A stretch of 64,000 bases of DNA from contig NZ_CP114903.1 of assembly GCF_027497255.1 (NCBI RefSeq), forward strand, positions 620,001 through 684,000. Reading direction: 5' to 3'. Both the position numbers and the translations under genes were made by a program. Every line of letters starts with the position of its first letter. Positions within the stretch are counted from its first letter, which is position 1. Of the stretch, positions 8,581 to 25,667 are shown piece by piece. Origin of the DNA: Micromonospora sp. WMMD882 (lineage in GTDB: Bacteria > Actinomycetota > Actinomycetes > Mycobacteriales > Micromonosporaceae). Under the pieces are notes generated by a model. That model ran no database searches and was not told the origin of the DNA. It saw only the letters and a list, made by a program, of their open reading frames with translations.

Positions 8581-9318
8581 ATGGGCGACGAAGCGATGAT
8601 CGCGGGGGGCCGTCGGGTGCCGCCGGGCGGAACGTCGTCGGGAAGACCCGGCGGCCGGCTCGCCGACGAGGTGTACGACACGCTGCTCGGGCAGTTGATG
8701 TCGCTACGGATCGAGCCTGGATCCCGCGTCACGATCGACGTCCTGGCGCGCGAGCTGGGGGTCTCGCAGACGCCGATCCGGGACGCGCTGAACCGCATGG
8801 AGGCCGAGGGCCTGGTGGTGCGGGTGCCGCATGCCGGCTACCGCATTCCACCCCAGATCACCCGGCGCCGGTTCGAGGACATGCTGGAGGTCCGCCTGCT
8901 CCTCGAGCCGGCGGCGGCGCGCCGGTGCGCCGAACGCGCGTCCCCGGCGCAGGTGGCCGGTCTGCGCCGGATGCTGGCGGAGATGGCGGAGCTGGAGGGG
9001 GGCGACGGGCCCACCGCCTACGGCGCCTTCGGTCTGCGCGACGCCGCCCTCCACGACCTCGTCGCCCGCAGCGCGGAGAACCAGGTCATCCGGGAGGCGC
9101 TCGCCCGCCTGCACAGCCACGTGCACCTCTTCCGGCTGCACCACGACACCCAGGTCACCCACCTGGCGATGGCCGAGCACGAGGAGGTCGTGGCCGCGAT
9201 CGCCGCGCGTGACCCCGACGCCGCCGCCTACGCGATGCGTCGGCACATCCTGCGCTCCGGCGAGCGCTTCCGACGACTGTTCGACGAGATCGGGGACGCG
9301 GTGGCGGTGGAGGCTTGA
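8581..9318 (+). CDS. GntR-family (FCD) transcriptional regulator
   Basis: 245 residues. The N-terminal winged helix-turn-helix is seen in LADEVYDTLLGQLMSLRIEPG and ELGVSQTPIRDALNRMEAEGLV (about residues 25-80), followed by an alpha-helical FCD-type effector domain containing RLLLEPAAARRCAERA and ending with the MRRHILRSGERF helix. FadR-subfamily proteins with this layout repress catabolic genes and release DNA on binding an organic acid. The ATG at 8581 follows AGGAGAGG; the longer open frame upstream is antisense to the aldehyde dehydrogenase. Its position divergent from the two dehydrogenases suggests it controls them. An alternative start is the ATG at 8596. Confidence 0.88.
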   Translation: MGDEAMIAGGRRVPPGGTSSGRPGGRLADEVYDTLLGQLMSLRIEPGSRVTIDVLARELGVSQTPIRDALNRMEAEGLVVRVPHAGYRIPPQITRRRFEDMLEVRLLLEPAAARRCAERASPAQVAGLRRMLAEMAELEGGDGPTAYGAFGLRDAALHDLVARSAENQVIREALARLHSHVHLFRLHHDTQVTHLAMAEHEEVVAAIAARDPDAAAYAMRRHILRSGERFRRLFDEIGDAVAVEA

Positions 9319-9408
9319 CGGGCGGGCGGGGCCGGGTAATGCTGACTCAATCGGATTCGATCGGATTGGATCTACCTCACCCGCGCCCCCAGATGCGAGG
9401 AGAAGCAG
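9319..9408 (+). promoter_or_regulatory. Leader of DJ-1 gene with 10-bp tandem repeat
   Basis: The gap between the regulator and the DJ-1 gene contains two adjacent copies of TCGGATTNGA (9351-9360 and 9361-9370), an unusually AT-rich pair in this DNA. GAGGAGAAG just before 9409 is the ribosome site. The repeats could be a binding site for the upstream regulator; that is inference. Confidence 0.35.
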
Positions 9409-9978
9409 GTGCCCAGAGCGCTGCTCCTGACCGGCGACGCCGCGGAGGAGCTCGACACCATGTATCCCTACTACCGCGTGCAGGAGGGCGGCTGGGACGT
9501 CGACGTCTCGTCACGGACGCTGCGTGACGTGCAACTGGTCATCCACGAGTTCGACCCCAACTCCGACGCCTACGTGGAGAAGGACGGCCGGAAGCTGCCG
9601 GTCGACGTGCCCTGGGCCGAGGTCGACGTCGAACGTTACGACGCCCTCATCATCCCCGGGGGCCGCGCCCCCGAGTGGATCCGGGTCGACGCCGACGTCA
9701 GGCGCATCACCGAGCACTTCTTCGCGCGCAACCTCCCCGTCGCGCTGGTCTGCCACGGCGCGCAGGTGCCAGCGGTGTACGGGCTGCTGAAGGGGCGCAG
9801 GACGGCGTGTTTCCCCCCGATCACCGGCGACATGGAGAACGCGGGCGCGACGGTCGTCGACGCTCCCGACGTCGTGGACGGCAACCTCGTCTCCTGCCGG
9901 GGTTGGCCCGACATGCCGCAGTTCGGCCGGGCGATGATGGAGGTCTTCTCGAAGTCCGTCGACCCCGCGTCGGCCTGA
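9409..9978 (+). CDS. DJ-1/PfpI family protein
   Basis: 189 residues with the class I glutamine amidotransferase-like fold of the DJ-1/PfpI group. The nucleophile-elbow cysteine is residue 115 in ALVCHGAQVP, and the preceding YDALIIPGGRAPEW block is typical. Members include proteases, chaperones, glyoxalases and isonitrile hydratases. The GTG start follows a good GAGGAGA ribosome site. It lies between the GntR regulator and an alpha/beta hydrolase, so it probably works in the same small-molecule catabolic module. A specific reaction cannot be assigned. Confidence 0.85.
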   Translation: MPRALLLTGDAAEELDTMYPYYRVQEGGWDVDVSSRTLRDVQLVIHEFDPNSDAYVEKDGRKLPVDVPWAEVDVERYDALIIPGGRAPEWIRVDADVRRITEHFFARNLPVALVCHGAQVPAVYGLLKGRRTACFPPITGDMENAGATVVDAPDVVDGNLVSCRGWPDMPQFGRAMMEVFSKSVDPASA

Positions 9979-12011: not shown

Positions 12012-12225
12012 GGTAGGTCCCGGGCGGATCGTGGCCGGGACCGGAGGGACCGGGCGTCGTGCCGTACGTGACAAGTTCGTCACGGATCGCCGCGTGGGTC
12101 TGCCTCGCCGGCAGTTGTCGCTTTCCCCGGCAGCCCTACGAGCCCTGTTCCGTCGACGGCCCCCGTGCTTCCATTGTGGATGCCCTGCGATCAGGGCAAT
12201 CAATCAACTGGGCTGGGAGGTCGTC
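12012..12225 (+). promoter_or_regulatory. Upstream region of the lanthipeptide precursor gene
   Basis: 214 bases between the divergent GIY-YIG gene and lanA. It holds an inverted repeat CGTGAC-AAGTTC-GTCACG (12067-12084), a candidate operator, and a perfect hairpin TGCCCTG-CGAT-CAGGGCA (12181-12198) just before the ribosome site GGGAGG (12215-12220). No clear -10/-35 pair was identified. A regulatory role is inferred. Confidence 0.45.
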
Positions 12226-12423
12226 ATGAGCATCGACGTGCTGGAGCGCGCGGAGGCGGAGCAGTTGGTGGCCCGCTGGCGGGAGAGCGCCGACGGGGAC
12301 AACCCGGCCGGCGCCCTCTACACCGGCGGCGCGTACGCCGAAGCCGACATCGTCGCCGCCGCCTGGGCCGAGACCGTCCGCTGCTCGAGCTGTACCGCGT
12401 CCCTGACCCGGCTCTGCTGCTGA
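12226..12423 (+). CDS. lanA: Class II lanthipeptide precursor (LanA)
   Basis: 65-residue peptide starting MSIDVLERAE; the start is fixed by GGGAGG five bases upstream. The first ~47 residues act as leader: a W-R-E-S...D-N-P-A-G segment (about 19-29) matches the (N/H)PAG signature of mersacidin/actagardine leaders. The C-terminus is rich in modifiable residues: CSSCTASLTRLCC (53-65) has four Cys, three Ser and two Thr. If processing follows the actagardine pattern after an Ala-rich stretch, the core would be WAETVRCSSCTASLTRLCC (19 residues); cleavage after GG35 is another option. The stop is one base before the LanM start. The usual lipid-II-binding CTxTxEC motif is absent. Recognition rests on the adjacent LanM and peptide composition. 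Confidence 0.88.
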   Translation: MSIDVLERAEAEQLVARWRESADGDNPAGALYTGGAYAEADIVAAAWAETVRCSSCTASLTRLCC

Positions 12424-12424
12424 C

Positions 12425-15286
12425 GTGCCCGGCAACCCGGACGACGCGTTCGCGCCGGCGCTGGGCTGCCTGGTCGAGCCGCACCTGGCCGATCTGACAG
12501 CCCAGCTCCGGACCGTCGGGGCCCTGGGTCGCGCGGAACGGGTCGCCCTGGTCGCCTCCCTACGTGAGCAGCTCTACCAGAGCGTGCACCGCCGGGTCGC
12601 CCGCGTGCTGGTGCTCGAACTCCACGCCGCCCGGGTCACCGGCGCCCTGCACGCGCCCGATCCGGCCGGGCGCTGGGACGAGTTCCTCGCCCGCGCCGCC
12701 GGGCCCGACTACTGGCGTCAGCTCGGCAGCCACTACCCGACCCTGCTGCCCCGGCTGCGGACGCTGATCGGTAACCGCTGCGCCGCGGCCCGTGCGCTGG
12801 CCGGCCGGTTCGCCGTCGACCGTCCCGCCCTCGCCGCCCTGGTCCCCGACGGCCCCGGCGACCTGACCCGGGTGGATCTCGGCGCCGGCGACAGCCACCG
12901 GAACGGGCAGACCGTGGCGATCCTGCGCTGCCACGGTGGTCCGGTCGTCTACAAGCCACGTTCGGTCGTCGTCGACACCGCCCTGGCCGACCTGCTGTCC
13001 TGGTTGCTGCCCGACGAGCCGGCGACGACCCGGGTCCGGGTGCCGGCCGCGCTGCCCCGGGACGGCTACGGCTGGACCGGGTACGAGGTCCACCGCTACT
13101 GCGCCGACGACGCCGAACTCGCCGCGTTCTACCGGGGCCTGGGCCACTGGGCGGCGCTGATGCGGCTGCTCGGTGGCACCGACCTGCACGCCGAGAACGT
13201 CATCGCGGTCGGGCCGGTGCCGGTGGTCGTGGACTGCGAGACCCTGTTCACCCCGTTGCCGCCGCAACCGCCTTCCGGTTACGGCCGGGCCGTCGACCGG
13301 GCGACCGCGCTGATCGAGGGGACCGCGCTGCGGACCGGGCTGCTGCCGGGCCGGGGCGTGGCGCTCGGCTGGCGCGGGGTCGACATGTCCGCCGGGGGCT
13401 CGCTGCCCGGGCAACAGCCCATGGTCGAGCAACCGGTGATCGTGGACGCGGGCACCGACCGGGCCCGGCTCGGGACCGCGTCGTTCGAGGTGACCCCGGC
13501 GGCCAACCATCCCAGCCCGGCCCCGGCCCTCGCCGCCCACTGGCGGCACGTGCTGGCCGGCTTCGACGAGCTGACCGAGCGGTTGGCCGCCCAGGACCGG
13601 GCGGGCCGGTTGGCCCCGCGCCTGGCCGCCTTCGCGGACTGCCCGGTACGGGTGGTGCCCCGCGGCACCGAGGTGTACGCCGAGCTGGGACGGATGCTCT
13701 GGCACCCGGTCTCCCTGCACGACGAGCCAGCCGCCGTGGCCCGGGCGACCCGGTTGCTCACCGCCATGGCCCGGTACGCGCCGCTCGCCCCGGCCGACCC
13801 GGAGGTGGTCGGCGCGGAGGTCGCCGAACTGCTCGACGGGGACGTGCCCTTCTTCGACACGGTGCCCCGGGACGGACGCCTGACCGGTCCGCGCGGCACC
13901 ACCTGGCTGCCCGCCGAGGACCTGGTCGACGGCGCGCTGCGCCGCTGGCGGCAGGCGGACCTCGACCGGGAACGCGAGGTCATCCGGGCCACCCTGGTCA
14001 GCGCGTACCTCAACGAGGGGTACCTGCCCCGGTCCACGCCGATGCCCCGGGCCAGGCCGGTCCTCGACGACCTGGACCGGCGTCGCCGCCGCCTGGCCGC
14101 GGCGACGGTACGTCGGGTCGCCGCCACGGCGGTCCACGCCGACGACGGCACCGTCACCTGGATAGCTCCCGTGCTCAACGCCACCGGTTGGGCCGTCCAA
14201 CCGCTCAACCCGGACGTCTACAACGGCGCGGCCGGGGTGGCGGTGCTGCTGGCCGGCTACCAGCGTGAGGTGGACCGGGGCCGGGCCGATCCGGTGGACG
14301 GGGTCGACGCCCTGCGTGACGCCGTGCTCCGCACCCTGCGGCTGGCGCCGGAGCAGCGGTCCGCGCAACGCCGCGCGGGCGCCCCGCTGCGTCCGCCGCC
14401 GTCCGGCGGCTACGTCGGCGCGGGTTCCCAGATCTGGGCCTGGCTGCTGTTGGACCGGTGGGGGGTGGCCGGCCCGGACGGCCTGGGCCGCGCGGTCGCC
14501 GCCGCCGCCGAGATCGACCCCGACGACGGTGACGTCGATCTGCTGACCGGGGCCGCCGGAGCGGTCGTGCCGCTGCTGTGTCTGGCCGAGCGGACCGGTG
14601 ACCCGAGGTGGCGGTCGTTGGCGACCACGATCGGTGACCGGCTGGTCGCCGCCGCGACGGTCACCGACGGGTTGGCCCGATGGCCCAGCGCCCGCTGGCC
14701 GGAGGGGCTCGGCGGGTACGCCCACGGGGCCACCGGGGTCGGCTGGGCGCTGTGTCGGCTCGCGACGGCCACCGGCCTGCCCCGCTTCGCGGCCGTCGCG
14801 GACGCCGCCCGCGGGTACGAGGAATCGCTGTTCGACCCGGTCGAGGGCGGTTGGCGGGACCTGCGGAACACCGGGATCACCGCGGCGGCCTGGTGCCATG
14901 GCGCGGTCGGGATCGGCCTGGCCGCCCTGGACAGCGCCCCGGCCCCGGACCGGATCGACCGGGGCCTGCTGCGCCGGGCGGCCGACGCCACCTGGGCGAC
15001 CGGGCTCGGCTGGGGGCACAGCCTCTGCCACGGCGATCTCGGCGCGTGGGAGCTGCTCGACGCCGCCGTGGCGCACGGCGTCGGCCCGGCCGGCCTGGAC
15101 CGGCGGACGCTGGCCGCCTGCGTGATCGGCGGGTTGGAGGAGCACGGGCCGGTCACCGGGCTGGCCCGGGAGGCGTTCTCGCCGGGGCTGATCAGCGGCG
15201 AGGGCGGGATCGCCTACCAGTTGCTGCGTATGCACCCCGACTGCGACCTGCCGTCGGTGCTGCTCCCCGGGGGTGGTACGCGCTGA
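12425..15286 (+). CDS. lanM: Class II lanthipeptide synthetase LanM
   Basis: 953 residues, normal for a bifunctional LanM. The N-terminal half is the kinase-like dehydratase: GGPVVYKPRS, a GTDLHAENVI loop and VVVDCETLF. It phosphorylates and eliminates Ser/Thr of the precursor to dehydroamino acids. The C-terminal half is the LanC-like cyclase with zinc ligands Cys824 (AAWCHGAVG) and Cys868-His869 (SLCHGDLG), which adds Cys thiols to make (methyl)lanthionine. The GTG start lies one base after the precursor stop, so translation is coupled. Its substrate is the peptide encoded immediately upstream. All key motifs are intact. Confidence 0.96.
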   Translation: MPGNPDDAFAPALGCLVEPHLADLTAQLRTVGALGRAERVALVASLREQLYQSVHRRVARVLVLELHAARVTGALHAPDPAGRWDEFLARAAGPDYWRQLGSHYPTLLPRLRTLIGNRCAAARALAGRFAVDRPALAALVPDGPGDLTRVDLGAGDSHRNGQTVAILRCHGGPVVYKPRSVVVDTALADLLSWLLPDEPATTRVRVPAALPRDGYGWTGYEVHRYCADDAELAAFYRGLGHWAALMRLLGGTDLHAENVIAVGPVPVVVDCETLFTPLPPQPPSGYGRAVDRATALIEGTALRTGLLPGRGVALGWRGVDMSAGGSLPGQQPMVEQPVIVDAGTDRARLGTASFEVTPAANHPSPAPALAAHWRHVLAGFDELTERLAAQDRAGRLAPRLAAFADCPVRVVPRGTEVYAELGRMLWHPVSLHDEPAAVARATRLLTAMARYAPLAPADPEVVGAEVAELLDGDVPFFDTVPRDGRLTGPRGTTWLPAEDLVDGALRRWRQADLDREREVIRATLVSAYLNEGYLPRSTPMPRARPVLDDLDRRRRRLAAATVRRVAATAVHADDGTVTWIAPVLNATGWAVQPLNPDVYNGAAGVAVLLAGYQREVDRGRADPVDGVDALRDAVLRTLRLAPEQRSAQRRAGAPLRPPPSGGYVGAGSQIWAWLLLDRWGVAGPDGLGRAVAAAAEIDPDDGDVDLLTGAAGAVVPLLCLAERTGDPRWRSLATTIGDRLVAAATVTDGLARWPSARWPEGLGGYAHGATGVGWALCRLATATGLPRFAAVADAARGYEESLFDPVEGGWRDLRNTGITAAAWCHGAVGIGLAALDSAPAPDRIDRGLLRRAADATWATGLGWGHSLCHGDLGAWELLDAAVAHGVGPAGLDRRTLAACVIGGLEEHGPVTGLAREAFSPGLISGEGGIAYQLLRMHPDCDLPSVLLPGGGTR

Positions 15287-17160
15287 ACGACGACCGGGAC
15301 GATCCACAGCTCGACGCCCCGTACTGGCGGCTGGACGACCCGGGGGACGACCGGGCCGGGCTCCTGCGCCGGACCCGTACCGCCGTCCGGCCGGTGTGGG
15401 ACGTCGTCCGGGCGGCGGCGCCCCGCGCGGCGGCGGTCGTGCTGGTCGCGCACGTCCTCTCCGGTGTCGTGTCGGCCCTCGGGCTGCTGGCCACGACCGA
15501 CGTGCTGGCCGGTCTGCTCGCCCCGGGCAGCGCCCGGCACCGGCTGGCCGCCGCTCTGCCCGCGCTCACCCTGGTCGTCGTCGCCCTGGTCGTCCGGGGC
15601 GCGTTGGACACGGTGGCCGAGTCGGCCCAGGCCCGGCTGGTGCCGACGGTGCGGCTGGTGGCCGAGGAACGTCTGGTCGACGCCGCCCTGCGGGCCGACC
15701 TGGCGGCCTTCGACGACCCGTCCTTCTACCACCGTCTGCACCGGGCCGGGGAACGCGGCCTGATGCGACTGGAGGAGTCGACGCAACACCTGCTGGCCCT
15801 GGTCGGCGCGGCCACCGCCATGGTCGCGGTCGCCGGTACCCTCGGCGTGCTGCATCCGGCGCTGCTGCCGGTGCTGTTACTGGCGGCGCTGCCGCAGGGC
15901 TGGGCGGTCCTGCGGTCCGCCCGACTGGAGTACGCGAGCCAGAGCCGCACGGTGACGCTGCAACGACGGATCGACATGGTCGGCGAACTGGCCGTCCGCC
16001 GGGAGTCCGCCGCCGAGATCCGGTCCCACCAGGCCGAGCCGCTGGTGCGGGCCGAGTACCGGCAGGCGGCCGGCAGGTTGCACGGGCACTGGGTGCGGCT
16101 CGGCGTCGCCCAGGCCCGGACCCGGGCGGTGGGGCGGGCCCTGGCCGGTGTCGGCCTGGCCGCGACGTACGCCGGGCTGGGCCTGCTGGTGCGCTCCGGC
16201 TGGGTGCCGCTGGCTGTCGCCGGGGCCGCCGCGATCGCCGTGCAGGTGGGGGCCAGCGCTCTGGCCCGCCTGATCGTGGCGGCCAACCACCTGGCCGAAC
16301 AGGGCCTCTACATCGCCGACTACCAGGAGTTCCTGGCCGACGCGGCGAGCCGGGCCCGGCCGTCGACCGGCCGACCCGCGCCCGCCGTGCCGGCCCGCAT
16401 CGACCTGCTCGGGGTCGGGTTCCGCTACCCGGGCAGCGAGGGGACGCCACCGGCCCTGCGTGGGATCGATCTGACCATCCGGGCCGGCGAGACCATCGCC
16501 CTGGTGGGGGAGAACGGCTCCGGCAAGACCACCCTGGCCAAGCTCCTCGGCGGACTGTACCGGCCCACCAGCGGCCGGATCACCTGGGACGGCACGGACC
16601 TCGCCGACCTCGACCCGACGAGTGTGGCCGACCGGGTGACGACCGTGTTGCAGGAACCGGTGCGCTGGCCGCTCAGCGCCCGGATGAACGTCCGGGTCGG
16701 CCGGCACGACCGGGTCGACCCGCACGACCACGCGTTGCTCGCCGCCGCCCGTCAGGCGCGGGCCGACGAGGTCGTCGACAGCCTGCCCCACGGGTGGCAC
16801 ACCGTGCTGTCCGCGTACTTCCTGGGTGGGCGGGACCTGTCCGGTGGGCAGTGGCAGCGCGTCGCCGTGGCCCGTGGCCTGTACCGGGACGCGCCGGTGC
16901 TCATCTGGGACGAGCCCACCGCGCCGCTGGACGCGCGGGCCGAGCACGCCGTGTACGAGTCGCTGCGCGAGCTCGCCGGGGGCCGTACCGTCGTGCTGAT
17001 CACCCACCGGTTGGCCAGCGTCCGCCACGCGGACCGGATCTACCTGCTGCACGAGGGCCGCATCGTGGAACAGGGCACCCACCAGGAACTGCTCACCGCC
17101 GGCGGTCGTTACGCCGAGCTGCACGCCCTGCAGGACCGGCTCCGCGAGGTGGGCGCCTGA
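15283..17160 (+). CDS. ABC exporter of the lanthipeptide operon
   Basis: About 625 residues: an N-terminal six-helix membrane domain (first helix AAAVVLVAHVLSGVVSALG) fused to a nucleotide-binding domain with GENGSGKTT Walker A, LQEP Q-loop, LSGGQWQRVAVAR signature, and a WDEPTAPLD Walker B where Leu is usual before DEPT. It should export the modified peptide or give immunity. It has no N-terminal C39 peptidase domain, so it cannot remove the leader as LanT proteins do. The start is uncertain: no ATG or GTG lies in frame near the LanM stop; CTG at 15283 overlaps that stop (CTGA) and is preceded by GGGGGTGG. A GTG near 15394 is the alternative. Confidence 0.9.
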   Translation: MNDDRDDPQLDAPYWRLDDPGDDRAGLLRRTRTAVRPVWDVVRAAAPRAAAVVLVAHVLSGVVSALGLLATTDVLAGLLAPGSARHRLAAALPALTLVVVALVVRGALDTVAESAQARLVPTVRLVAEERLVDAALRADLAAFDDPSFYHRLHRAGERGLMRLEESTQHLLALVGAATAMVAVAGTLGVLHPALLPVLLLAALPQGWAVLRSARLEYASQSRTVTLQRRIDMVGELAVRRESAAEIRSHQAEPLVRAEYRQAAGRLHGHWVRLGVAQARTRAVGRALAGVGLAATYAGLGLLVRSGWVPLAVAGAAAIAVQVGASALARLIVAANHLAEQGLYIADYQEFLADAASRARPSTGRPAPAVPARIDLLGVGFRYPGSEGTPPALRGIDLTIRAGETIALVGENGSGKTTLAKLLGGLYRPTSGRITWDGTDLADLDPTSVADRVTTVLQEPVRWPLSARMNVRVGRHDRVDPHDHALLAAARQARADEVVDSLPHGWHTVLSAYFLGGRDLSGGQWQRVAVARGLYRDAPVLIWDEPTAPLDARAEHAVYESLRELAGGRTVVLITHRLASVRHADRIYLLHEGRIVEQGTHQELLTAGGRYAELHALQDRLREVGA

Positions 17161-17219: not shown

Positions 17220-17627
17220 TCAGTTGGCCGGGAGGGGCGGCAGCTCGTAGAGGTACGCCGGCGCCCGGTACGACAGGTAGGTGCCCTTCGACCAACTGTG
17301 GAAGCTGTTGAGGTTGTCCGCCCGGCCGCCGCAGTCGGCGGTCCGGTAGCCGGGGACGACGTGGAAGCCGCCGCTCCAGCCGAGCGCCCAGGTCGCGTCG
17401 GCCGGGACGGGACGGCAGACGTCGTCCGGGGTGGCCTGCCGGCCGACCACCTCGGTCGGGTTGCTGGAGTAGAAGACGAGGCCCTGGTCGGGGTACTGGA
17501 CCGGCTCACCGGCGGATGCCGGCGAGCCCGGCACGGTGACGGTCGACGTGGCGACCACGGCGGCGGCGACGCCTGCGGCGATCCGGGCGGCGACGCCTGC
17601 GGCGATCCGGGTGGCGGGTCCGGGCAT
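17220..17627 (-). CDS. Small secreted protein of unknown function
   Basis: 135 residues. An N-terminal signal peptide of about 39 residues ends in PGSPASA before GEPVQY. The mature part has two cysteines (DVCRPV, TADCGG) and aromatic-rich segments FHVVPGYRTAD, FHSWSKGTYLSY and APAYLYELPP. The ATG at 17627 is preceded by GGAAGGA. The signal peptide is lengthened by a perfect 24-base tandem duplication that repeats RIAAGVAA. I recognise no family; it may be a cell-wall or spore-associated protein. It converges on the lanthipeptide operon and is not clearly part of it. Confidence 0.7.
   Translation of the reverse strand: MPGPATRIAAGVAARIAAGVAAAVVATSTVTVPGSPASAGEPVQYPDQGLVFYSSNPTEVVGRQATPDDVCRPVPADATWALGWSGGFHVVPGYRTADCGGRADNLNSFHSWSKGTYLSYRAPAYLYELPPLPAN
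17563..17610 (-). repeat. 24-base perfect tandem duplication in signal peptide
   Basis: Two identical 24-base copies (17563-17586 and 17587-17610) encode a repeated RIAAGVAA in the hydrophobic core of the signal peptide. The frame is kept. Confidence 0.9.
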
Positions 17628-17808
17628 GGCTGTCCTTCCGGGGCGGTGTGCGGGGAAGGGGAGGATGTGATCCCGAGCCGGGATCATGGTCACCTCTGTC
17701 TATGCCAACGATCCATCGGGATGGTTTCGCTGTCAACTGATCGAGGCGGGTCCGCGCCGGGTCGATCTGGTCGAGCAGGGCGCGGTGGGGCCCGGCGAGC
17801 CGCTTCGG

Positions 17809-17859: not shown

Positions 17860-18000
17860 ATGCCCCGCTCGTGCCGGTGGCGCTCCCTGCTCTGGTCAGG
17901 GGCGCTCGCGCGGGCATCCGGATCCGAATCGCCTTTCAGGTTCGATCTCTTCTGGTGGCAGGTGTCCTGTGTCAGACAGTGTCTTTCTGTGCGCCCGTGA
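17860..18000 (+). CDS. Possible leader peptide upstream of ABC-F gene
   Basis: ATG-initiated 46-codon frame beginning MPRSCRWRSLLWSG about 16 bases after the predicted transcription start and ending inside the ABC-F coding start (GTG 17969). It lacks a clear ribosome site, so it could only be read from a near-leaderless mRNA. Antibiotic-resistance ABC-F genes are often controlled by translated leader peptides that sense stalled ribosomes; position and overlap fit that idea. It contains a WW pair late in the peptide. This is a weak call and could be a chance frame. Confidence 0.3.
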   Translation: MPRSCRWRSLLWSGALARASGSESPFRFDLFWWQVSCVRQCLSVRP

Positions 18001-19579
18001 CGTGGCGAAATCCTATGGTGACCGGCAGGTGTTCGACGGGACGTCCCTCTCCGCGTCCCCGGGCCAGCGCATCGGCCTGGTGGGGGAGAACGGCGTCGGC
18101 AAGTCGACGCTGCTGCGGCTGCTGGCCGGGGTGGAGGAGCCCGACGCCGGCGAGGTGCGACGCCCGGCCGACTGCGGCTTCCTGTGGCAGGAGTCGCCGT
18201 TCGCGCCGGACGCGACGGTGCAGGACGTCGTCGACGACTCGCTCGCCGAGCTGCGGGCCGCCCGGACCAGGCTGGACCAGCTCACCGCAGAGCTGGAGCG
18301 ACGGCCGGACGACGCCGACGTGCTCGCCGCCTACGGCGACCAGATCGAGTGGGCGCAGGACCACGACCTCTGGGACGCCGACCGTCGGGCCGAGCTCGTG
18401 CTGGCCGGGCTCGGGCTGGCCGCCACGGATCGGTCGCGACCGCTCGCGACGCTCTCCGGAGGCCAACGTTCCCGGCTGGGTCTGGCCGGGCTGCTGATCC
18501 GGCAACCGCGGGCGATGTTGCTGGACGAGCCGACGAACCACCTCGACGACGAGGCGGTCGGTTTCCTGGAGGAGCGGTTGCGGGGGCTGCCCGGGGTGGT
18601 CGTCGTCGCCTCGCACGACCGGGTGTTCCTGGACGAGGTCTGCACCGACATCGTCGACCTGGACCCGACCCGCGGCACGGCGAGCCGCTACGGTGGCGCG
18701 TACACCGAGTACCTGCGGGCCAAACGCCGGGAGCGGATCCGCTGGCAGGAGCAGTACGCGGCCGAGCAGGTACAGCTCGACGAGCTGCGCGAGGCGGTGC
18801 GGACCACGGCGCGGGCGGTCAACCACGCGCGGACCATCAGGGACAACAACAAGGTCGGGTACGACCGGCACGGTGGCCGGGTGCAGAAGCAGGTTTCCCG
18901 ACGGGTGCGCGACGCCCGGCAACGCCTGGACGAGTTGACCCGCGACCAGGTGCGCGAACCCCCGAACCCGCTGGCTTTCGCGGCGACGCTCACCGGCAGC
19001 CCGGCAGACGACCGGGTCGCGGTGTCGCTGTCCGGGGTGGCGGTGGCCGGGCGGCTGAACGTCGACCGTCTCGACGTCTCCACATCGGAGCGGCTGCTGG
19101 TCACCGGCCCGAACGGCGCCGGCAAGTCCACCCTGCTGCGGGTGATCGCCGGTCGTCTCGTGCCGGACGCCGGAGCGGTGCTGCGGGCCGGCGGCGTCCG
19201 CATCGGCCTGTTGGAGCAGGAGGTGCGCTTCCCCGACGACGAACAGACCCCGCGGCAGGTCTACGACGCGGCGGCCGGACCCGACCCGGTGTCGTTGGCG
19301 CAACTCGGTCTGCTGGCCCCGCGCGACGTGGACCGCCCGCTCGGCCGCCTCTCCGTCGGGCAGCGACGGCGGCTGGCGCTCGCGCTGCTGGTGGCCACGC
19401 CACCGGACGTGCTGCTGCTCGACGAACCGACCAACCACCTGTCGCTGAGCCTGGTCGAGGAGCTGGAGGACGCGCTGCGGACGGCGCCCGGCGCGGTCGT
19501 CGTCGCCTCGCACGACCGCTGGCTGCGGCGCGGCTGGAAGGGCGCCGAGCTCTCCCTGTTGAACGGCGCGATCGTCTGA
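17969..19579 (+). CDS. ABC-F ribosome-protection-type ATPase (first of pair)
   Basis: 536 residues with two ATPase domains and no membrane segment, the ABC-F layout. Domain 1 has GENGVGKST, LSGGQRSRLGLAG and LLDEPTNHLDD; domain 2 has GPNGAGKST, LSVGQRRRLALALL and LLLDEPTNHLS. The linker (about residues 240-320) is the charged helical region that enters the ribosome, containing VNHARTIRDNNKVGYD. The NHLS in place of NHLD and the LSVGQ signature resemble OleB/TlrC/CarA-type macrolide self-resistance proteins. Such proteins displace ribosome-bound antibiotics. The GTG start follows a weak AGG-containing site. The drug protected against is unknown. Confidence 0.9.
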   Translation: MSDSVFLCARDVAKSYGDRQVFDGTSLSASPGQRIGLVGENGVGKSTLLRLLAGVEEPDAGEVRRPADCGFLWQESPFAPDATVQDVVDDSLAELRAARTRLDQLTAELERRPDDADVLAAYGDQIEWAQDHDLWDADRRAELVLAGLGLAATDRSRPLATLSGGQRSRLGLAGLLIRQPRAMLLDEPTNHLDDEAVGFLEERLRGLPGVVVVASHDRVFLDEVCTDIVDLDPTRGTASRYGGAYTEYLRAKRRERIRWQEQYAAEQVQLDELREAVRTTARAVNHARTIRDNNKVGYDRHGGRVQKQVSRRVRDARQRLDELTRDQVREPPNPLAFAATLTGSPADDRVAVSLSGVAVAGRLNVDRLDVSTSERLLVTGPNGAGKSTLLRVIAGRLVPDAGAVLRAGGVRIGLLEQEVRFPDDEQTPRQVYDAAAGPDPVSLAQLGLLAPRDVDRPLGRLSVGQRRRLALALLVATPPDVLLLDEPTNHLSLSLVEELEDALRTAPGAVVVASHDRWLRRGWKGAELSLLNGAIV

Positions 19580-19591
19580 ATGAGGTGTCCC

Positions 19592-21211
19592 ATGTCAGCT
19601 CAGCTCACGTTGCGGGCCGTCAGCAAGTCCTTCGCCCACCGCCGCGTGTTCGACGCCGTCTCCTGCGCCGTCCGGCCCGGCGAGCGGGTCGGCATCGTGG
19701 GGGAGAACGGCGTCGGCAAGTCCACGCTCCTGCGGATGATCGCCGGCCGCGACGATCCGGACGACGGCGAGATCATCGTGACGGCGGCCGGCGGCGTGGG
19801 GCACCTGGGCCAGGTGGTCGACCTGCCGGACGACTCGACCGTCGGCGACGCGATCGACGCCGCGCTCGGCGAGATCCGCGAGCTGGGGCGGCGGATCGCC
19901 GCCGCCGAGCGGGAGCTCGGGTCCGCCACCGACGAGCGGATGGCCGAGTACGGCGCGCTGCGGACGGCCTTCGAACTGCGGGACGGGTACCGGGCCGACG
20001 CCAAGGTCCAGGCGGCGATGTCCAGACTCGGCGTCGGCGACCTCGACCGGGATCGTCGGCTCGGCACGCTGTCCGGTGGTCAGCTCGCCCGGCTCGCGCT
20101 GGCCGGCGTGCTCTCCGCCGAGCCGGAGCTGCTGCTGCTCGACGAGCCGACGAACGACCTCGACCAGGAGGCGGTGGCCTGGCTGGAGGGCCGGTTGCGT
20201 GGCCACCACGGCACGGTCGTCGTGGTCACCCACGACCGGCTGCTGCTGGAGCGGGTCGCGACCGCGATCGTCGAGGTCGACGGCGACCGGCGCACGGTGC
20301 GCCGGTACGGCGACGGCTACGCCGGCTATCTCGCCGAGAGGCGCGCCGCCCGGCAGCGCTGGGAGCAGGCGTACGCGGAGTGGGTGGGTGAGGTCGAGCG
20401 TTGGACGGAGTGGGGCGCGACCACCGCCTACCGGGTGGCCCCCGGTCGCGCCATCAGGGACCACAACAAGTGCAAGTACAACGGTGACGGCAGACGGGTG
20501 CAGGAGTCCATCTCCACCCGGGTGCGCAGCGCGGCCGAGCGACTCGGGCGGTTGCGGGCCGAGCCGGTGCCCGAGCCGCCCGAGCCGCTGCGCCTGCACG
20601 CTCCGCTGGACGCCGACGGCCTCGACGGACCGGTGCTGGAACTGCGCGACGTACGGGTCGACGGCCGGCTCGACGTCGACGAGCTGGTGTTGTCCGCCGG
20701 CCAGCGGCTGCTGGTGTCGGGTCCCAACGGGGCGGGCAAGTCCACGTTGCTGGAGGTGGCGTCGGGCCGGCTGCGCCCGGACCGGGGCGCCGTCGTACGC
20801 CACGGCCGGATCGGATACCTGCCGCAGGACGTCCCGCCGCCCCGGCCGGACGTCAGTCTCCTGACCGCGTTCAGCCAGGGTCGGGTGGGCGCCCCGGAGG
20901 AGCACCGGGAACGTCTGCGGTCGATGGGTTTGTTCCGGCCGGACGACTTCCGTACGCCGGTCGGCGCGCTGTCGGTCGGGCAACGGCGTCGGCTCGCGCT
21001 GGCCCGCCTGCTGGACCGGGACGCCGACCTCCTGCTGCTCGACGAGCCGACGAACCACCTGTCCCTGACGCTGGTGGAGGAGTTCGAGGCCGCGCTGGAG
21101 GGCTACCCCGGCGCGGTCGTCGTGGTCTCGCACGACCGGATGCTGCGCCAGCGGTGGCGGGGCGGCGAGCTCACCCTGCGCTCCGGGCGGCTGAGCCGCC
21201 GGACGGCGTAG
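19592..21211 (+). CDS. ABC-F ribosome-protection-type ATPase (second of pair)
   Basis: 539 residues, same layout as the preceding gene: GENGVGKST and LSGGQLARLALAG with LLDEPTNDLDQ in domain 1, then GPNGAGKST, LSVGQRRRLALARLL and LLLDEPTNHLS in domain 2. The inter-domain helical linker has RAIRDHNKCKYNGDG, parallel to the first copy. ATG 19592 is preferred because GAGGTG lies just upstream; an in-frame ATG at 19580 overlaps the previous stop (TGAATG). The two genes are an ancient tandem pair, clearly diverged in sequence. Both are probably translated from one mRNA and protect the ribosome, perhaps against different ligands. Confidence 0.9.
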   Translation: MSAQLTLRAVSKSFAHRRVFDAVSCAVRPGERVGIVGENGVGKSTLLRMIAGRDDPDDGEIIVTAAGGVGHLGQVVDLPDDSTVGDAIDAALGEIRELGRRIAAAERELGSATDERMAEYGALRTAFELRDGYRADAKVQAAMSRLGVGDLDRDRRLGTLSGGQLARLALAGVLSAEPELLLLDEPTNDLDQEAVAWLEGRLRGHHGTVVVVTHDRLLLERVATAIVEVDGDRRTVRRYGDGYAGYLAERRAARQRWEQAYAEWVGEVERWTEWGATTAYRVAPGRAIRDHNKCKYNGDGRRVQESISTRVRSAAERLGRLRAEPVPEPPEPLRLHAPLDADGLDGPVLELRDVRVDGRLDVDELVLSAGQRLLVSGPNGAGKSTLLEVASGRLRPDRGAVVRHGRIGYLPQDVPPPRPDVSLLTAFSQGRVGAPEEHRERLRSMGLFRPDDFRTPVGALSVGQRRRLALARLLDRDADLLLLDEPTNHLSLTLVEEFEAALEGYPGAVVVVSHDRMLRQRWRGGELTLRSGRLSRRTA

Positions 21212-21323: not shown

Positions 21324-24300
21324 TCAGCAGCGGTTGGCGACGCAGAGCGGCAGGTCCGGGCTGTCGCCGGGAAGCGGCGGGTCAGGGGCGCCCGGCAGCG
21401 GTGTGGGGTTGCCTGGCGTGGGGCCGCCGGCCGCGCCGTTGTTGAACCAGGCGCGGATGCCGCCCTGATCGTCGAGGACGAGGTAGTCGGCCCGGCGATC
21501 GCCGTTGATCTCGGCGAGTTCCACCCGGTCACCCGGGTAGCCGGCGCCCGAGGCGACCTCGCCGAGCGACAGCCAGGCCGAGCCGGGTCCGCCCCGGTTG
21601 TTGAGCCAGGCCCGGATCTGCCCGCGCCCACCGATGACCAGGTAGTCGTCGCGGCGGTCGCCGTCGAGGTCGGCGAAGGTGACGGTGTTCCCGGCCGCGC
21701 CGACGCCGGCGGCGATCTCGCCCTGGGCCGCCCAGGTGACGGCGCTGCCGACGCCGGTGTTGAGCCAGGCCTGGACCTGGCCGAGGTCGCCGACGAGCAG
21801 GTAGTCGTCGCGTCCGTCGCCGTTGACGTCGGCGAAGCGCACCTGGCTCCGGGGGCCGGCGCCGGTGGCGACCTGACCCGACGACGTCCAGGCCACGGCG
21901 TCGCCGGTTCCCGTGTTCCGCCACAGCCGGATCTGTCCCTGGTCGCCGACGAGCAGGTAGTCGTCGCGTCCGTCGCCGTCGAGGTCGGCGAAGCGCACCT
22001 GCTCACGTGGGCCGGCGCCGGTGGCGACCTCACCACGCCAGTTCCAGCCGACCCGGCCACCGTCGCGCACGTTGAGCCAGGCCCGCACCTGGCCCTGCTC
22101 ACCGACCGCGAGGTAGTCGTCGCGTCCGTCGCCGTTGAGGTCGGCCAGCCGTACCTGCTCCCGGCCGACGCCGCTGGTCGCGATCAGGCCCTGCCAGTCC
22201 CACGGGTCGGGGCGACCGTACCGGTCGTTGAGCCAGGCGCGGACCTGCCCCTGCTCGCCGACGACGAGGTAGTCGTCGCGGCCGTCGCCGTTGACGTCGG
22301 CCAGGGCGAGCTCGGCGCTCGTCGCGCCGACGCCGCCGGCGACGTCACCCTGATAGATCCACGGTCGCTCGGATCCGACGTCGTTCAGCCAGCCACGGAT
22401 CTGCGCCTGGTCGCTGACGGTCAGGTAGTCGTCGCGGCCGTCGCCGTCGAGGTCGGCGAACCGGACGCGGTCCCGGGTCGAGCCCACCCCGGTGGCGACC
22501 TCGCCCTGGTAACTCCACCCCGGGCCGCCGGCGCCGTACGCGTTCAGCCAGGCTTTCACCTGGCCCTGGTCACCGACGACGAGGTAGTCCACCCGACCGT
22601 CCACGTCGATGTCGGCGAAGCGCACCTGGTCGCGGGTCGCGCCGACCCCGGGGGCGACCACGCCCAGGGCCGTCCAGGACACCGCGTCGCCGACGCCGGC
22701 GTTGCGCCACGCCTGCACCTGGCCCTGGTCGCCGACGAGCAGGTAGTCGTCGCGGCCGTCGCCGTCGAGGTCGGCGAACCGGACCTGCTCACGCGGCCCC
22801 GCGCCCGAGGCGACCTCGCCCCGGAACTGCCAGCCGAAACTGTCACCACTGCGCCGGTTCAGCCACAACCGGACCTGCCCCTGGTCGTCGACGAGCAGGT
22901 AGTCGTCCTGGCCGTCGCCGTTGAGGTCGGCGAACCGGACCTGCTCGCGGGGGCCGGTGCCCGGGGCGATCTCACCGACCCAGTTCCAGCCGGCCGGCCG
23001 GGGGGTGCCGGGAGGCGGGTTGCCCGCCGGGCTGCCGCACGGGGAGGAGTCACCGGCGACCGGGGGACGGATGAGCCCTTCGGCGAGGGCGTCGGTGACG
23101 GCCCGACCGAACGCGTCGGCCATCTTGCGGTAGCCGGTGTTGTTCGGGTGCAACGAGTCGGTCAGGTCCGCGGCGGTCACCGCGCTCATGCTGACCAGCC
23201 GCACCGGCCGCCCCTCGGCGCGCAGCTCGTCGACGATGCCGGCGACCCGCGCGTTGTACTGCTGGATCCGGTTGTTGGTCACGCTCGTCAGTGACGGCAC
23301 GAGAGTGGCCACCAGCACGGTGGTCTCCGGGGCCAGCCGGAGGATGTGTTCGACGAGCGCCTGCAACCGGGCCGGCGCCGACGCGACGTCGACGTTGTTG
23401 GCCAGGTCGTTGGTGCCGATGTGCAGGGTGACCACGTTGGGCCGGTAGCGGCGCACCGTGCAGTCGCCGACCAGGTTGTCGATCTGGCTGATCCGCCAGC
23501 CCGGGTGCCCTTCGTGGTCGGTGTCGGGCAACTGGCCGGAGTCCACCGAGCCGACGAAGTCCAGCGCCCCGGGCTTGGCCGACAGTTGATCCCACAGCCG
23601 GGCCCGGTAACCGGTCCCCGCCGGGCTCCCGCCGACCCCGTGGGTGATCGAGTCGCCCAACGGAAGCACCCGCAGATCCACGTTGCCCGGCGCCGGCGTC
23701 ACCGACGGCGGCGTCGGCAACGGACCGTCCGGATCCTCGGTCATCCCGAAGCTGTAACCGGTGTCGACGTTCGGGCCCGGGACGTTCTGCCGGGCGTAGG
23801 GGACGGTGTTCCACCAGGTGAAAGCGCCTTCGTACCAGACCCGGTTCTCCCACTTGTAGGTCATGCCCGCCGGCACCCCGTGGTACAGGAACCGGCCTCT
23901 CGACCCGGCCGGCACGCCGTTGCGCGCATCGCCGCCGGGCAGGGCGAAGCTGTGGTGGCCGGGACCGTCGGCGTTGCGGATGGCACGGTACCCGGACATC
24001 ATGGTCGCCGGGTCCGAGCCGAACACGCAGCCGTTCGACTTGTACCAGTCCCACACGTACGTCGGGTCGCCGCCCTTGCGCAGCCGCAGGTCACCGAGGC
24101 AGTACTTGTCGCTCCACGAGCCGTTGGCCGAGTACGCGATGTGCAACTGCCCGTTCGGGTCGACGATCGGCTCGGGCGCCTCGTTGACGAACGGGTCACC
24201 GACCACCCGTTCCCACGACTCCCGGGGCTGGGAGATCCGGTACCTCGGCCCGGTCGTGGTGGTGGGGTTGGTCATCCGGGCGAGGTAGATGTTCTGCTCG

Positions 24301-25547
24301 ACGTTCGTGGCGCCCTCCCAGCCCGACCAGACGAACCACAGTTGGTTGTCGAAGGTGAACGCCGTGCCGTCGATCGCCCACCGGTCGTCGGGCAGGCTCA
24401 GCTTCTGGTGGCTGCCGTAGCCGCCGGTCGGCGACGACGAGCTGATCACGTACATCCGGTGGGCGGCGCCCGCCCCGGCGGTGAAGTACACGTGGTAGCG
24501 GCCCGAGACGGCGACCAGTTGCGGCACCCACAGCTCGGCCAGGCCCGGGTTGCTCCAGATCCGGCGGGGCGGGGCGTCACCCAGCGCGGCCAGGCTGGCC
24601 GCCGACCTCGTGTAGATGCCGTCCCCACCGGACTCCACCGAGTGGTAGGTGTCGCCGACCCGGATCACGCTCGGGTCGGCGCCCCGGACGAACAGTCGCC
24701 CCGGGGTGGGCGGCGGCAGCAGGTCCGGTAGCGGCTGACCCTCGACGTTCCAGCCGCGCATCTCCCAGGCCAGGTGCTCCTCCAGCTCGATGGCCAACTC
24801 GGCGGCCTCCTCCGCGGCCACCGCGAACGGCACGCCGAAGGCCGACTGCAACGCGGGGACCTTGACGAGTAGCCAGTTGCCGAAGTTCTTCAACGCGCCC
24901 GGCAGGTAGTCCTTCGCGAAGCCCGTCGCGTACCTCTCCCAGACGAAGCCGACGACCAGGCCGACGACCGTGCGGATGATGATGTCCGCCCAGGCCCCGG
25001 CGGTCGCCAGGTCGCCCGCGAAGGCGTGTACGATCAGACCGCTGACGAAACCGGTCACGGCGCCCTGCATGGGGGTGCAGATCAGCGGCACTGTCGCCGC
25101 GCCCACGCCGGTGCTCAACAACGCGCCGACGCACAGCACCCGTAGCCCGTAGCCGGCGAGAGCGCCGATCGCCAGGGCGATGAGCTGGATCCACCACGAC
25201 GACGACCGGACCTCCGTGGCCGGCACGGTGAGCGTCATCCCCGCCCCGTCCGGGGTCAGCGTCAACGTGCCGTCGAAGTCCGGCACCGAGGAGACGTCGA
25301 GGGCGGCGACCCCACCGGGCGGATTCTCCCGTAGGTCCTTCTTGATGGATGCGCCGAGCCCACCGTCCTGGCGGATCTCGGCCTGGATCTGCGGCACGAC
25401 CTGACGGATGACCGCGGGGTCCAGGCCCATGTCCGCCGCGGTGAGGGTGAGGGTGAGATCAGTGGCGGCCCGCGCGGGCACGGCACCGAGGGACGCCACC
25501 AGCACCGCGACGAGCAATGCGGATATCGCGAACCGGATTTTCTGCAC
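21324..25547 (-). CDS. Secreted GH43 / SGNH-esterase / FG-GAP repeat protein
   Basis: About 1407 residues from the GTG at 25547 (signal peptide KIRFAISALLVAVLVASLG ending AVPARA). In order: a small N-terminal domain; a strongly hydrophobic Gly/Ala-rich part (about 110-215); a GH43-like five-bladed propeller (about 280-610) with catalytic-looking Asp in GADPSVI, Asp in WAIDGT and Glu in NEAPEPI; an SGNH/GDSL esterase (about 625-800) with LGDSITHG, GTNDLANN and SLHPNNTGY; and ten FG-GAP repeats of about 53 residues. It likely cleaves arabinose or xylose side chains and acyl esters on plant polysaccharide. A GTG at 25637 in frame would add 30 residues before the signal peptide and seems less likely. 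Confidence 0.85.
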   Translation of the reverse strand: MQKIRFAISALLVAVLVASLGAVPARAATDLTLTLTAADMGLDPAVIRQVVPQIQAEIRQDGGLGASIKKDLRENPPGGVAALDVSSVPDFDGTLTLTPDGAGMTLTVPATEVRSSSWWIQLIALAIGALAGYGLRVLCVGALLSTGVGAATVPLICTPMQGAVTGFVSGLIVHAFAGDLATAGAWADIIIRTVVGLVVGFVWERYATGFAKDYLPGALKNFGNWLLVKVPALQSAFGVPFAVAAEEAAELAIELEEHLAWEMRGWNVEGQPLPDLLPPPTPGRLFVRGADPSVIRVGDTYHSVESGGDGIYTRSAASLAALGDAPPRRIWSNPGLAELWVPQLVAVSGRYHVYFTAGAGAAHRMYVISSSSPTGGYGSHQKLSLPDDRWAIDGTAFTFDNQLWFVWSGWEGATNVEQNIYLARMTNPTTTTGPRYRISQPRESWERVVGDPFVNEAPEPIVDPNGQLHIAYSANGSWSDKYCLGDLRLRKGGDPTYVWDWYKSNGCVFGSDPATMMSGYRAIRNADGPGHHSFALPGGDARNGVPAGSRGRFLYHGVPAGMTYKWENRVWYEGAFTWWNTVPYARQNVPGPNVDTGYSFGMTEDPDGPLPTPPSVTPAPGNVDLRVLPLGDSITHGVGGSPAGTGYRARLWDQLSAKPGALDFVGSVDSGQLPDTDHEGHPGWRISQIDNLVGDCTVRRYRPNVVTLHIGTNDLANNVDVASAPARLQALVEHILRLAPETTVLVATLVPSLTSVTNNRIQQYNARVAGIVDELRAEGRPVRLVSMSAVTAADLTDSLHPNNTGYRKMADAFGRAVTDALAEGLIRPPVAGDSSPCGSPAGNPPPGTPRPAGWNWVGEIAPGTGPREQVRFADLNGDGQDDYLLVDDQGQVRLWLNRRSGDSFGWQFRGEVASGAGPREQVRFADLDGDGRDDYLLVGDQGQVQAWRNAGVGDAVSWTALGVVAPGVGATRDQVRFADIDVDGRVDYLVVGDQGQVKAWLNAYGAGGPGWSYQGEVATGVGSTRDRVRFADLDGDGRDDYLTVSDQAQIRGWLNDVGSERPWIYQGDVAGGVGATSAELALADVNGDGRDDYLVVGEQGQVRAWLNDRYGRPDPWDWQGLIATSGVGREQVRLADLNGDGRDDYLAVGEQGQVRAWLNVRDGGRVGWNWRGEVATGAGPREQVRFADLDGDGRDDYLLVGDQGQIRLWRNTGTGDAVAWTSSGQVATGAGPRSQVRFADVNGDGRDDYLLVGDLGQVQAWLNTGVGSAVTWAAQGEIAAGVGAAGNTVTFADLDGDRRDDYLVIGGRGQIRAWLNNRGGPGSAWLSLGEVASGAGYPGDRVELAEINGDRRADYLVLDDQGGIRAWFNNGAAGGPTPGNPTPLPGAPDPPLPGDSPDLPLCVANRC
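21440..22990 (-). repeat. Ten FG-GAP/VCBS-type coding repeats
   Basis: Ten tandem units of roughly 155-160 bases, each encoding a variant of RFADLDGDGRDDYLLVGD followed by GQVRAWLN and a Trp-containing spacer. The DxDGxxD loop is a calcium-binding signature of beta-propeller blades. Units 9 and 10 have drifted (DGDRRDD, NGDRRAD). Confidence 0.9.
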
Positions 25548-25667
25548 AGTGGCATTCAACTGTCTTGACGCCCGGCGGCAGTGTCGCCCAGGTGAACATT
25601 GCCCGGCAGCGCATGGCGATCGGGACGTCGTGACCACCCGAGCAGGTCGACGGCGCCGGCCGTGCGC

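What the first reader, a model, noticed from the sequence alone, without database searches (positions are those of the whole stretch)
12226..15286. Undescribed-looking class II lanthipeptide with a CSSCTASLTRLCC C-terminus
A 65-residue precursor lies one base before an intact LanM. Its leader has the NPAG signature of mersacidin/actagardine-type precursors, but the core lacks the CTxTxEC lipid-II motif and ends in two adjacent cysteines. Four Cys and five Ser/Thr could give up to four rings or a mix of lanthionine and disulfide. This may be a new ring topology with a different target.
Basis: partly seen in the sequence, partly recalled or inferred. Interest (0 to 1): 0.78.

Follow-up and report, generated by a model that had tools for sequence, protein, structure and literature searches.

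The report
Widespread rhodanocin-like ring-forming lanthipeptide precursor
The gene encodes a small peptide that a neighbouring enzyme should staple into several sulphur-bridged rings; it belongs to a known but little-studied family found in many bacteria, and comparing its relatives suggests which residues are joined, including one bridge not reported for the one relative whose rings have been solved.

Summary
In detail: a 65-residue precursor (12226-12423) lies one base before an intact LanM (12425-15286), followed by a LanT-like ABC exporter with no C39 peptidase match. It is not undescribed: it is a clear DUF6229 (PF19740) member, a family already recognised as class II lanthipeptide precursors (PMC9576775). 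One member, rhodanocin, has NMR-solved rings Thr6-Cys11, Cys8-Ser14 and Thr12-Cys23. The window core carries the same residues in nearly the same register, which predicts T50-C56, C53-S59 and T57-C64 or C65. Of 329 anchored relatives, 278 carry this scaffold. Swaps support C53-S59: of 17 cores with Cys in place of that Ser, 16 have Thr/Ser or Cys at the partner position, in about four sequence clusters. The extra C-terminal Cys goes with Ser/Thr (270 of 272) or Cys (2) two residues before C56; the 6 scaffold cores without CC have neither. This predicts a fourth bridge, S54-C65 or S54-C64. New variant of a known kind. The topology is inferred from sequence, the target is unknown, and the mersacidin label is not supported.

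The parts
12215..12220 (+). Shine-Dalgarno-like GGGAGG, five bases before the ATG
   Evidence: read in sequence
12226..12423 (+). lanA: 65-residue DUF6229 precursor peptide gene, stop included
   Evidence: PF19740 E 4e-21; 637 relatives at E<=0.01, best 120 listed
12301..12312 (+). NPAG leader motif, residues 26-29
   Evidence: P27, A28, G29 invariant in the 10-sequence alignment; N26 is Ser in some
12373..12420 (+). core TVRCSSCTASLTRLCC, residues 50-65. Predicted bridges: T50-C56, C53-S59, T57-C64 (or C65), S54-C65 (or C64). The N-terminal end of the mature core is unknown.
   Evidence: register match to the rhodanocin rings; conservation and co-variation in 329 anchored unique segments
12425..15286 (+). 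lanM: class II lanthipeptide synthetase, 953 aa, dehydratase plus LanC-like cyclase domain
   Evidence: TIGR03897 518 bits; PF13575 and PF05147; aligned to LicM2 6st5 over residues 44-946 and to CylM 5dzt over 43-607; motifs GDSHRNG, YKPR, DLHAEN, DCET, RVVPRGTEVY, WCHG, SLCHG present
15283..17160 (+). lanT-like ABC exporter without a C39 peptidase match; start uncertain (CTG 15283 overlapping the LanM stop, an upstream start inside lanM, or GTG 15394)
   Evidence: PF00005 matched and no peptidase C39 at E<=1; similarity to relatives' transporters starts at residue 6-10 of the CTG-started version in most; start candidates

Best explanation
The locus is a minimal class II lanthipeptide cassette (precursor, LanM, exporter). 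LanM is expected to bind the DUF6229 leader, dehydrate Ser/Thr in the C-terminal part and add Cys thiols to them, making the rhodanocin scaffold (T50-C56, the reverse-direction C53-S59, and T57 to one of the two C-terminal cysteines) plus a fourth bridge from S54 to the other terminal Cys. The ABC exporter would secrete it, and an unlinked protease would cut the leader somewhere between about residues 42 and 50. Shown here: the genes, intact LanM motifs, family membership, conserved positions and their co-variation. Taken from a paper: the ring pattern of one relative, rhodanocin. Inferred: the ring pairs in this peptide, secretion, leader removal and an antibacterial or signalling role.
For: PF19740 match; LanM and exporter. 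Rhodanocin is a DUF6229 product with MeLan 6-11, Lan 8-14, MeLan 12-23 and Dhb18 (passages). Its Cys-Cys spacing (8 to 11), Thr right after the second Cys (12), Ser at +3 (14) and terminal Cys match C53, C56, T57, S59, C64/C65; the upstream Thr is two residues before the first Cys there and three here. Of 350 unique segments, 329 could be anchored and 278 carry the scaffold; 275 of the 278 have Ser/Thr within 4 residues before C1. C1 and Ser at +3: both in 278, C1 only 6, Ser only 13, neither 32; one representative per 70% cluster, 57 clusters: 39, 2, 4, 12. With Cys at +3 (17 cores), position -3 is Thr/Ser in 11, Cys in 5, other in 1. Position -2 is Ser/Thr in 270 and Cys in 2 of 272 CC-ending scaffold cores, and neither in the 6 scaffold cores without CC; by 70% clusters 33, 0, 2, 4 (P 0.00018). 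Four Corallococcus-type cores with 5 Cys and 3 Ser/Thr in the stretch shown balance as three thioethers plus one C1-C(+3) disulfide.
Against: No chemistry was done. The rhodanocin sequence itself was not seen, only the residue positions stated in the text. Many of the 32 'neither' cores are plainly other core types (such as TTCSFGGGCACC) on which my anchor rule has little meaning, so that association is partly a contrast between core types and not co-variation within one. The swaps are few events: at 70% clustering the Thr/Ser swaps fall in two clusters (10 and 1 cores) and the Cys-Cys cases in two; P0172, one of the Cys-Cys cases, has 6 Cys and 4 Ser/Thr and does not balance in the simple way. 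Four of the six non-CC cores come from one genome. At 60% clustering the -2/CC association is not significant (4, 0, 1, 2; P 0.14). 13 anchored cores keep Ser at +3 without C1, so another pairing exists in the family. S55 and T61 are further possible partners. Part of the sample was gathered with CC-type or swap-type queries.
Confidence: 0.68

Rival explanations
1. Three rhodanocin-like thioethers form but the fourth Cys stays free or makes a disulfide (within the molecule or between two molecules).
For: Rhodanocin makes three thioethers only; Archangium LanII-2B left one of three Cys free; 6 of 202 scaffold-type cores have fewer Ser/Thr than Cys.
Against: The extra Cys goes with Ser/Thr at -2 in 270 of 272 CC cores, absent in the 6 non-CC scaffold cores; 196 of 202 scaffold-type cores (Ser or Cys at +3) have at least as many Ser/Thr as Cys.
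Confidence: 0.18
2. Non-crossing, epidermin-like pattern: short local rings, with S59-C64 and T61-C65 at the C-terminal CC.
For: The spacing of S59, T61 and CC resembles the C-terminal end of epidermin (recalled). Cores that keep Ser at +3 without C1 (13 of 329) must use that Ser otherwise, if they use it.
Against: Ser/Thr at the T61 position in only 143 of 278 scaffold cores; it explains neither the swaps at C1 and +3 nor the rhodanocin NMR rings. No LanD-type gene was named next to LanM, but LanD was not specifically searched for and not every neighbour was annotated.
Confidence: 0.08
3. The cassette is silent or decayed and makes no modified peptide.
For: No transcription or product data; the exporter start codon is unclear.
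Against: Precursor and LanM ORFs intact, LanM motifs present; a close relative precursor (P0002, 88% identical) keeps every Cys and every Ser/Thr proposed as a partner.
Confidence: 0.06

Closest known systems
Rhodanocin (LanII product of Dyella sp. 333MFSha, DUF6229; PMC9576775)
   Same: Same precursor family; Thr-x-C-xx-C-T-x-S...C register of the ring-forming residues
   Different: The reported product has 3 thioethers and one Dhb and ends in one ring-forming Cys (Cys23); the window core ends in CC and has a Ser two before the second Cys, giving a predicted fourth bridge
DUF6229 class II precursors of Lysobacter (PMC11451712, preprint)
   Same: 21 of 27 unique precursors there are DUF6229, in class II clusters (passage)
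   Different: Cores there fall in six groups said to differ in topology; their sequences were not seen by me, and none is reported as characterised in the passages read
Mersacidin/actagardine lantibiotics
   Same: Class II, LanM-modified, NPAG-like leader element (recalled)
   Different: No TxTxEC motif; no mersacidin-family model matched
Epidermin/gallidermin (recalled)
   Same: C-terminal CC with Ser close by
   Different: Class I LanB/LanC enzymes and a LanD decarboxylase (recalled); here LanM

Membership tests
DUF6229 (PF19740) | profile match over the curated cut-off | tested here: met
   75.1 bits, cut-off 25
Class II lanthipeptide cluster | LanM with DUF4135 dehydratase and LanC-like domain beside the precursor | tested here: met
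   TIGR03897 518 bits, PF13575, PF05147; one-base gap
Class II lanthipeptide cluster | LanM catalytic and zinc motifs intact | tested here: met
   motifs found; dehydratase motifs aligned to LicM2 and CylM, cyclase motifs to LicM2; their roles are recalled
Class II lanthipeptide cluster | (methyl)lanthionines in the product | not testable with these tools
   needs mass spectrometry
Rhodanocin-type scaffold | T, C, C, T, S, terminal C in the register of the solved rings | tested here: met
   positions from PMC9576775 passages; spacing of the first Thr differs by one; the rhodanocin sequence itself was not seen
Rhodanocin (three-ring product) | three ring-forming Cys, a single terminal one | tested here: not met
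   window core has four Cys, ending CC
Mersacidin/actagardine family | family model match and TxTxEC core motif | tested here: not met
   no NCBIfam match at E<=1, Pfam only DUF6229; motif absent
Epidermin/gallidermin (class I) | LanB/LanC type synthetase | tested here: not met
   the adjacent synthetase is a LanM
Epidermin/gallidermin (class I) | LanD decarboxylase making AviCys | not tested
   no specific LanD search was made

The most novel reading that the evidence does not exclude
The CC-type DUF6229 peptides are one ancient, multi-phylum lanthipeptide scaffold with four interlocked crosslinks (T50-C56, C53-S59, T57-C64/65, S54-C65/64), in which evolution has exchanged thioethers for reversed thioethers or disulfides at fixed pairs; such deep conservation would point to one conserved target or signal rather than ordinary antibiotic diversification.
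Probability: 0.4. Interest if true: 0.68.

Novelty: new variant of a known kind. Interest (0 to 1): 0.48.

Why it matters
One DUF6229 product with a solved structure was found in the papers searched, yet the CC core is found in named records of Actinomycetota, Myxococcota, Pseudomonadota, Acidobacteriota (MAGs) and one Verrucomicrobiota MAG (phylum names recalled). A co-variation-based ring map makes the topology directly testable with co-expression and tandem MS, and gives a natural series of thioether, reversed-thioether and disulfide candidates at the same position.

Tried and rejected
Mersacidin-type assignment: rejected, no model match. Two-peptide system: the genome holds one PF19740 match, so a second DUF6229 partner is unlikely; a partner of another family was not excluded. 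Neighbouring genes as part of the cluster (two ABC-F, GIY-YIG protein, alpha/beta hydrolase, small protein at 17220-17693): none found at E<=1e-20 in 59 related loci (with LanM in 56 and LanT in 31 of 59 as positive control; at least three record pairs are counted twice: L028/L053, L032/L059, L036/L083). At E<=1e-3 the two ABC-F queries hit 32 and 19 loci, probably other ABC ATPases, not checked one by one; the other three had no hit. Signal-peptidase AXA cleavage (AWA in the leader): not seen in several relatives by eye, dropped. A search for recurrent neighbours gave LanM and exporter; smaller groups, several of which lie antisense to these genes, were not annotated. Literature: DUF6229 (2 papers) and rhodanocin (1 paper) were followed into passages; PMC11251773 and PMC7268733 were seen as passages only. 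Of the further searches and a core-string search (16 papers, taken for chance DNA strings) I saw listings only; none showed a characterised CC-type product. Supplementary files could not be read. A phylum-wide sample of 396 genomes gave one match over the cut-off, the window's own genome, so the family is sparse there; the genome searches scored a capped number of candidates per genome, so their counts are lower bounds.

Full report
What is there. The precursor gene is at 12226-12423 and LanM at 12425-15286, one base apart. LanM matches TIGR03897 at 518 bits, holds the DUF4135 and LanC-like domains, aligns to the solved LicM2 over nearly its whole length and to CylM over the dehydratase part, and keeps the motifs GDSHRNG, YKPR, DLHAEN, DCET, RVVPRGTEVY, WCHG and SLCHG (their roles are recalled). 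An ABC exporter without a C39 peptidase match follows directly; its start is uncertain: CTG 15283 overlapping the LanM stop, a start further upstream inside lanM, or GTG 15394.

What family it is. The precursor is a DUF6229 (PF19740) member at 75.1 bits against a cut-off of 25; no NCBIfam family matched it at E<=1. The window's genome has one such match. Searches of whole genomes at E<=0.001 found PF19740 in 13 of 300 genomes of the same taxonomic family (12 over the cut-off), 3 of 396 in the phylum sample (1 over the cut-off, the window's own genome), 27 of 117 in the Dyella family, 23 of 297 in the Lysobacter family, 17 of 200 in the Nonomuraea family and 29 of 96 in the Pyxidicoccus family. 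A profile search of predicted proteins gave 637 relatives at E<=0.01, of which the best 120 were listed; all 120 listed end in CC. The query was itself of CC type, so this share is biased.

Named relatives. A scan of genome contigs returned 44 loci: Luteimonas, Vulcaniibacterium, Xanthomonas, Dyella, Lysobacter, several Burkholderiales and an alphaproteobacterial MAG; Pyxidicoccus, Myxococcus and Corallococcus; Acidobacteria MAGs; a Chthoniobacterales MAG; and actinomycetes such as Allorhizocola, Hamadaea, Nonomuraea and Streptacidiphilus. Not all are CC type: L062 has CC one residue before its end, and L083, L084 and L085 have other tails. LanM is found within 300 bases after the precursor in 42 of 44; the other two contigs end 96 and 23 bases after it. 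An exporter like the window's follows LanM in 20 of 44; several of the rest are cut by contig ends. Of 15 loci from the window's own taxonomic family, LanM is found in 15 and such an exporter in 8, one of them (L027) some 1.6 kb further on at 41% identity.

Link to a solved structure. PMC9576775 (abstract, section 9 in full, and passages of sections 7, 15, 16, 38 and 39 seen; supplement not seen) reports the DUF6229 product of Dyella sp. 333MFSha, rhodanocin: MeLan Thr6-Cys11, Lan Cys8-Ser14, MeLan Thr12-Cys23, Dhb18, with an MIC of 126 uM against Klebsiella pneumoniae for an AspN fragment that is probably not the native product. [quoted passage not shown] The window core T50-V-R-C53-S-S-C56-T57-A-S59-LTRL-C64-C65 carries the same ring-forming residues, with the first Thr one residue further off. 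Some Dyella-family cores, such as DIALISNCSSCTASRPGVCC in L107, have S6, C8, C11, T12 and S14 in the same numbering when counted from an Asp; that comparison is mine.

Conservation and co-variation. Precursors were picked out of the fetched loci with a leader-only profile, but the loci themselves had been found with the full PF19740 model or, so core sequence played some part. Only the last 130 residues of each frame were scanned, so precursors with very long tails (such as L084 and L085) were missed. With the listed proteins this gave 350 unique PxG-to-end segments; 21 had no anchor by my rule and were left out, leaving 329. Of these, 278 have C1, two or three residues, C2, Ser/Thr, any residue, Ser; 275 of the 278 have Ser/Thr within four residues before C1. 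C1 and Ser at +3: both in 278, C1 only in 6, Ser only in 13, neither in 32. One representative per cluster gives 7, 1, 0, 6 at 60% identity, 39, 2, 4, 12 at 70% and 119, 2, 8, 17 at 80% (the representative is the first listed, and 2, 7 and 2 clusters are mixed). Against this: many of the 'neither' cores are other core types (TTCSFGGGCACC and the like), so the association is partly between types.

Swaps. Among 17 cores with Cys at +3, position -3 is Thr or Ser in 11 and Cys in 5; the one other (L015) is probably misanchored. The Thr/Ser cases (as in ITSVCTGCGTIHCC) fall in two clusters at 70%, of 10 and 1 cores; the Cys-Cys cases are Corallococcus (3 named, 1 unnamed look-alike) and P0172. The Corallococcus type has 5 Cys and 3 Ser/Thr, which balances as three thioethers and one disulfide; P0172 has 6 Cys and 4 Ser/Thr. 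In the Nonomuraea family, five cores have lost both C1 and the +3 Ser (SSCTGA, TACTGA or SSCTAG), while two otherwise similar cores keep the Ser without C1.

The fourth bridge. Among the 278 scaffold cores, 272 end in CC (within two residues of the end); in these the residue two before C2 is Ser/Thr in 270 and Cys in 2. The 6 without CC have Gly, Ala or Leu there. The Ser/Thr equivalent to T61 is present in 143 of 278, and any Ser/Thr in the tail in 186 of 278. This points to S54, rather than T61, as partner of the extra Cys. By clusters (Ser/Thr with CC, Ser/Thr without CC, neither with CC, neither without) the counts are 4, 0, 1, 2 at 60% (P 0.14, not significant), 33, 0, 2, 4 at 70% (P 0.00018) and 111, 0, 2, 6 at 80%. 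Which of C64 and C65 pairs with T57 cannot be told.

Function. An exported antibacterial or signalling peptide is the likeliest role, by analogy with rhodanocin. The recurrent neighbours identified were LanM and the exporter; no immunity gene was recognised, but the neighbours were not all annotated. Conservation of one core across phyla seems unusual for an antibiotic and is unexplained.

Novelty. In the papers searched (mostly listings) I found no characterised CC-type DUF6229 product; subscription papers and supplements were not searched. The thing is a member of a known family with a predicted extra crosslink, hence a new variant of a known kind.

Noticed in passing
L084 and L085, about 9001-9522 (Nonomuraea basaltis, N. 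candida): A DUF6229-type NPAG leader is joined to a long Cys-free tail of NTR repeats, directly upstream of a LanM; a LanM substrate that could be dehydrated but not make lanthionines.
   Followed up: no
window 17969-21211: Two tandem ABC-F genes closest to the TlrC/CarA/OleB/SrmB ribosomal-protection group but below its cut-off; not clearly linked to the lanthipeptide cassette.
   Followed up: partly
G1175:C23:201051-202771 and L014-L023 (G037:C1:7976282-7978132): Arrays of seven and five DUF6229 matches in a row, with differing cores; one in G037 lacks Cys.
   Followed up: no
L156, L157, L158, L160: Very short cores SSCTCSRFCC from the Nonomuraea family, in L156 and L157 next to a second precursor SSCTGAxTIACC; possibly a different ring pattern.
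   Followed up: no
L052: A record labelled Comamonas carries a cassette whose precursor is very close to that of Myxococcus vastator (L050); the label may be wrong.
   Followed up: no
window 21324-25637, minus strand: Large secreted-looking protein with FG-GAP/VCBS-like repeats and a GDSL-type stretch (by eye); its only NCBIfam match at E<=1e-10 is weak (FusH, 54.6 bits against 999).
   Followed up: no
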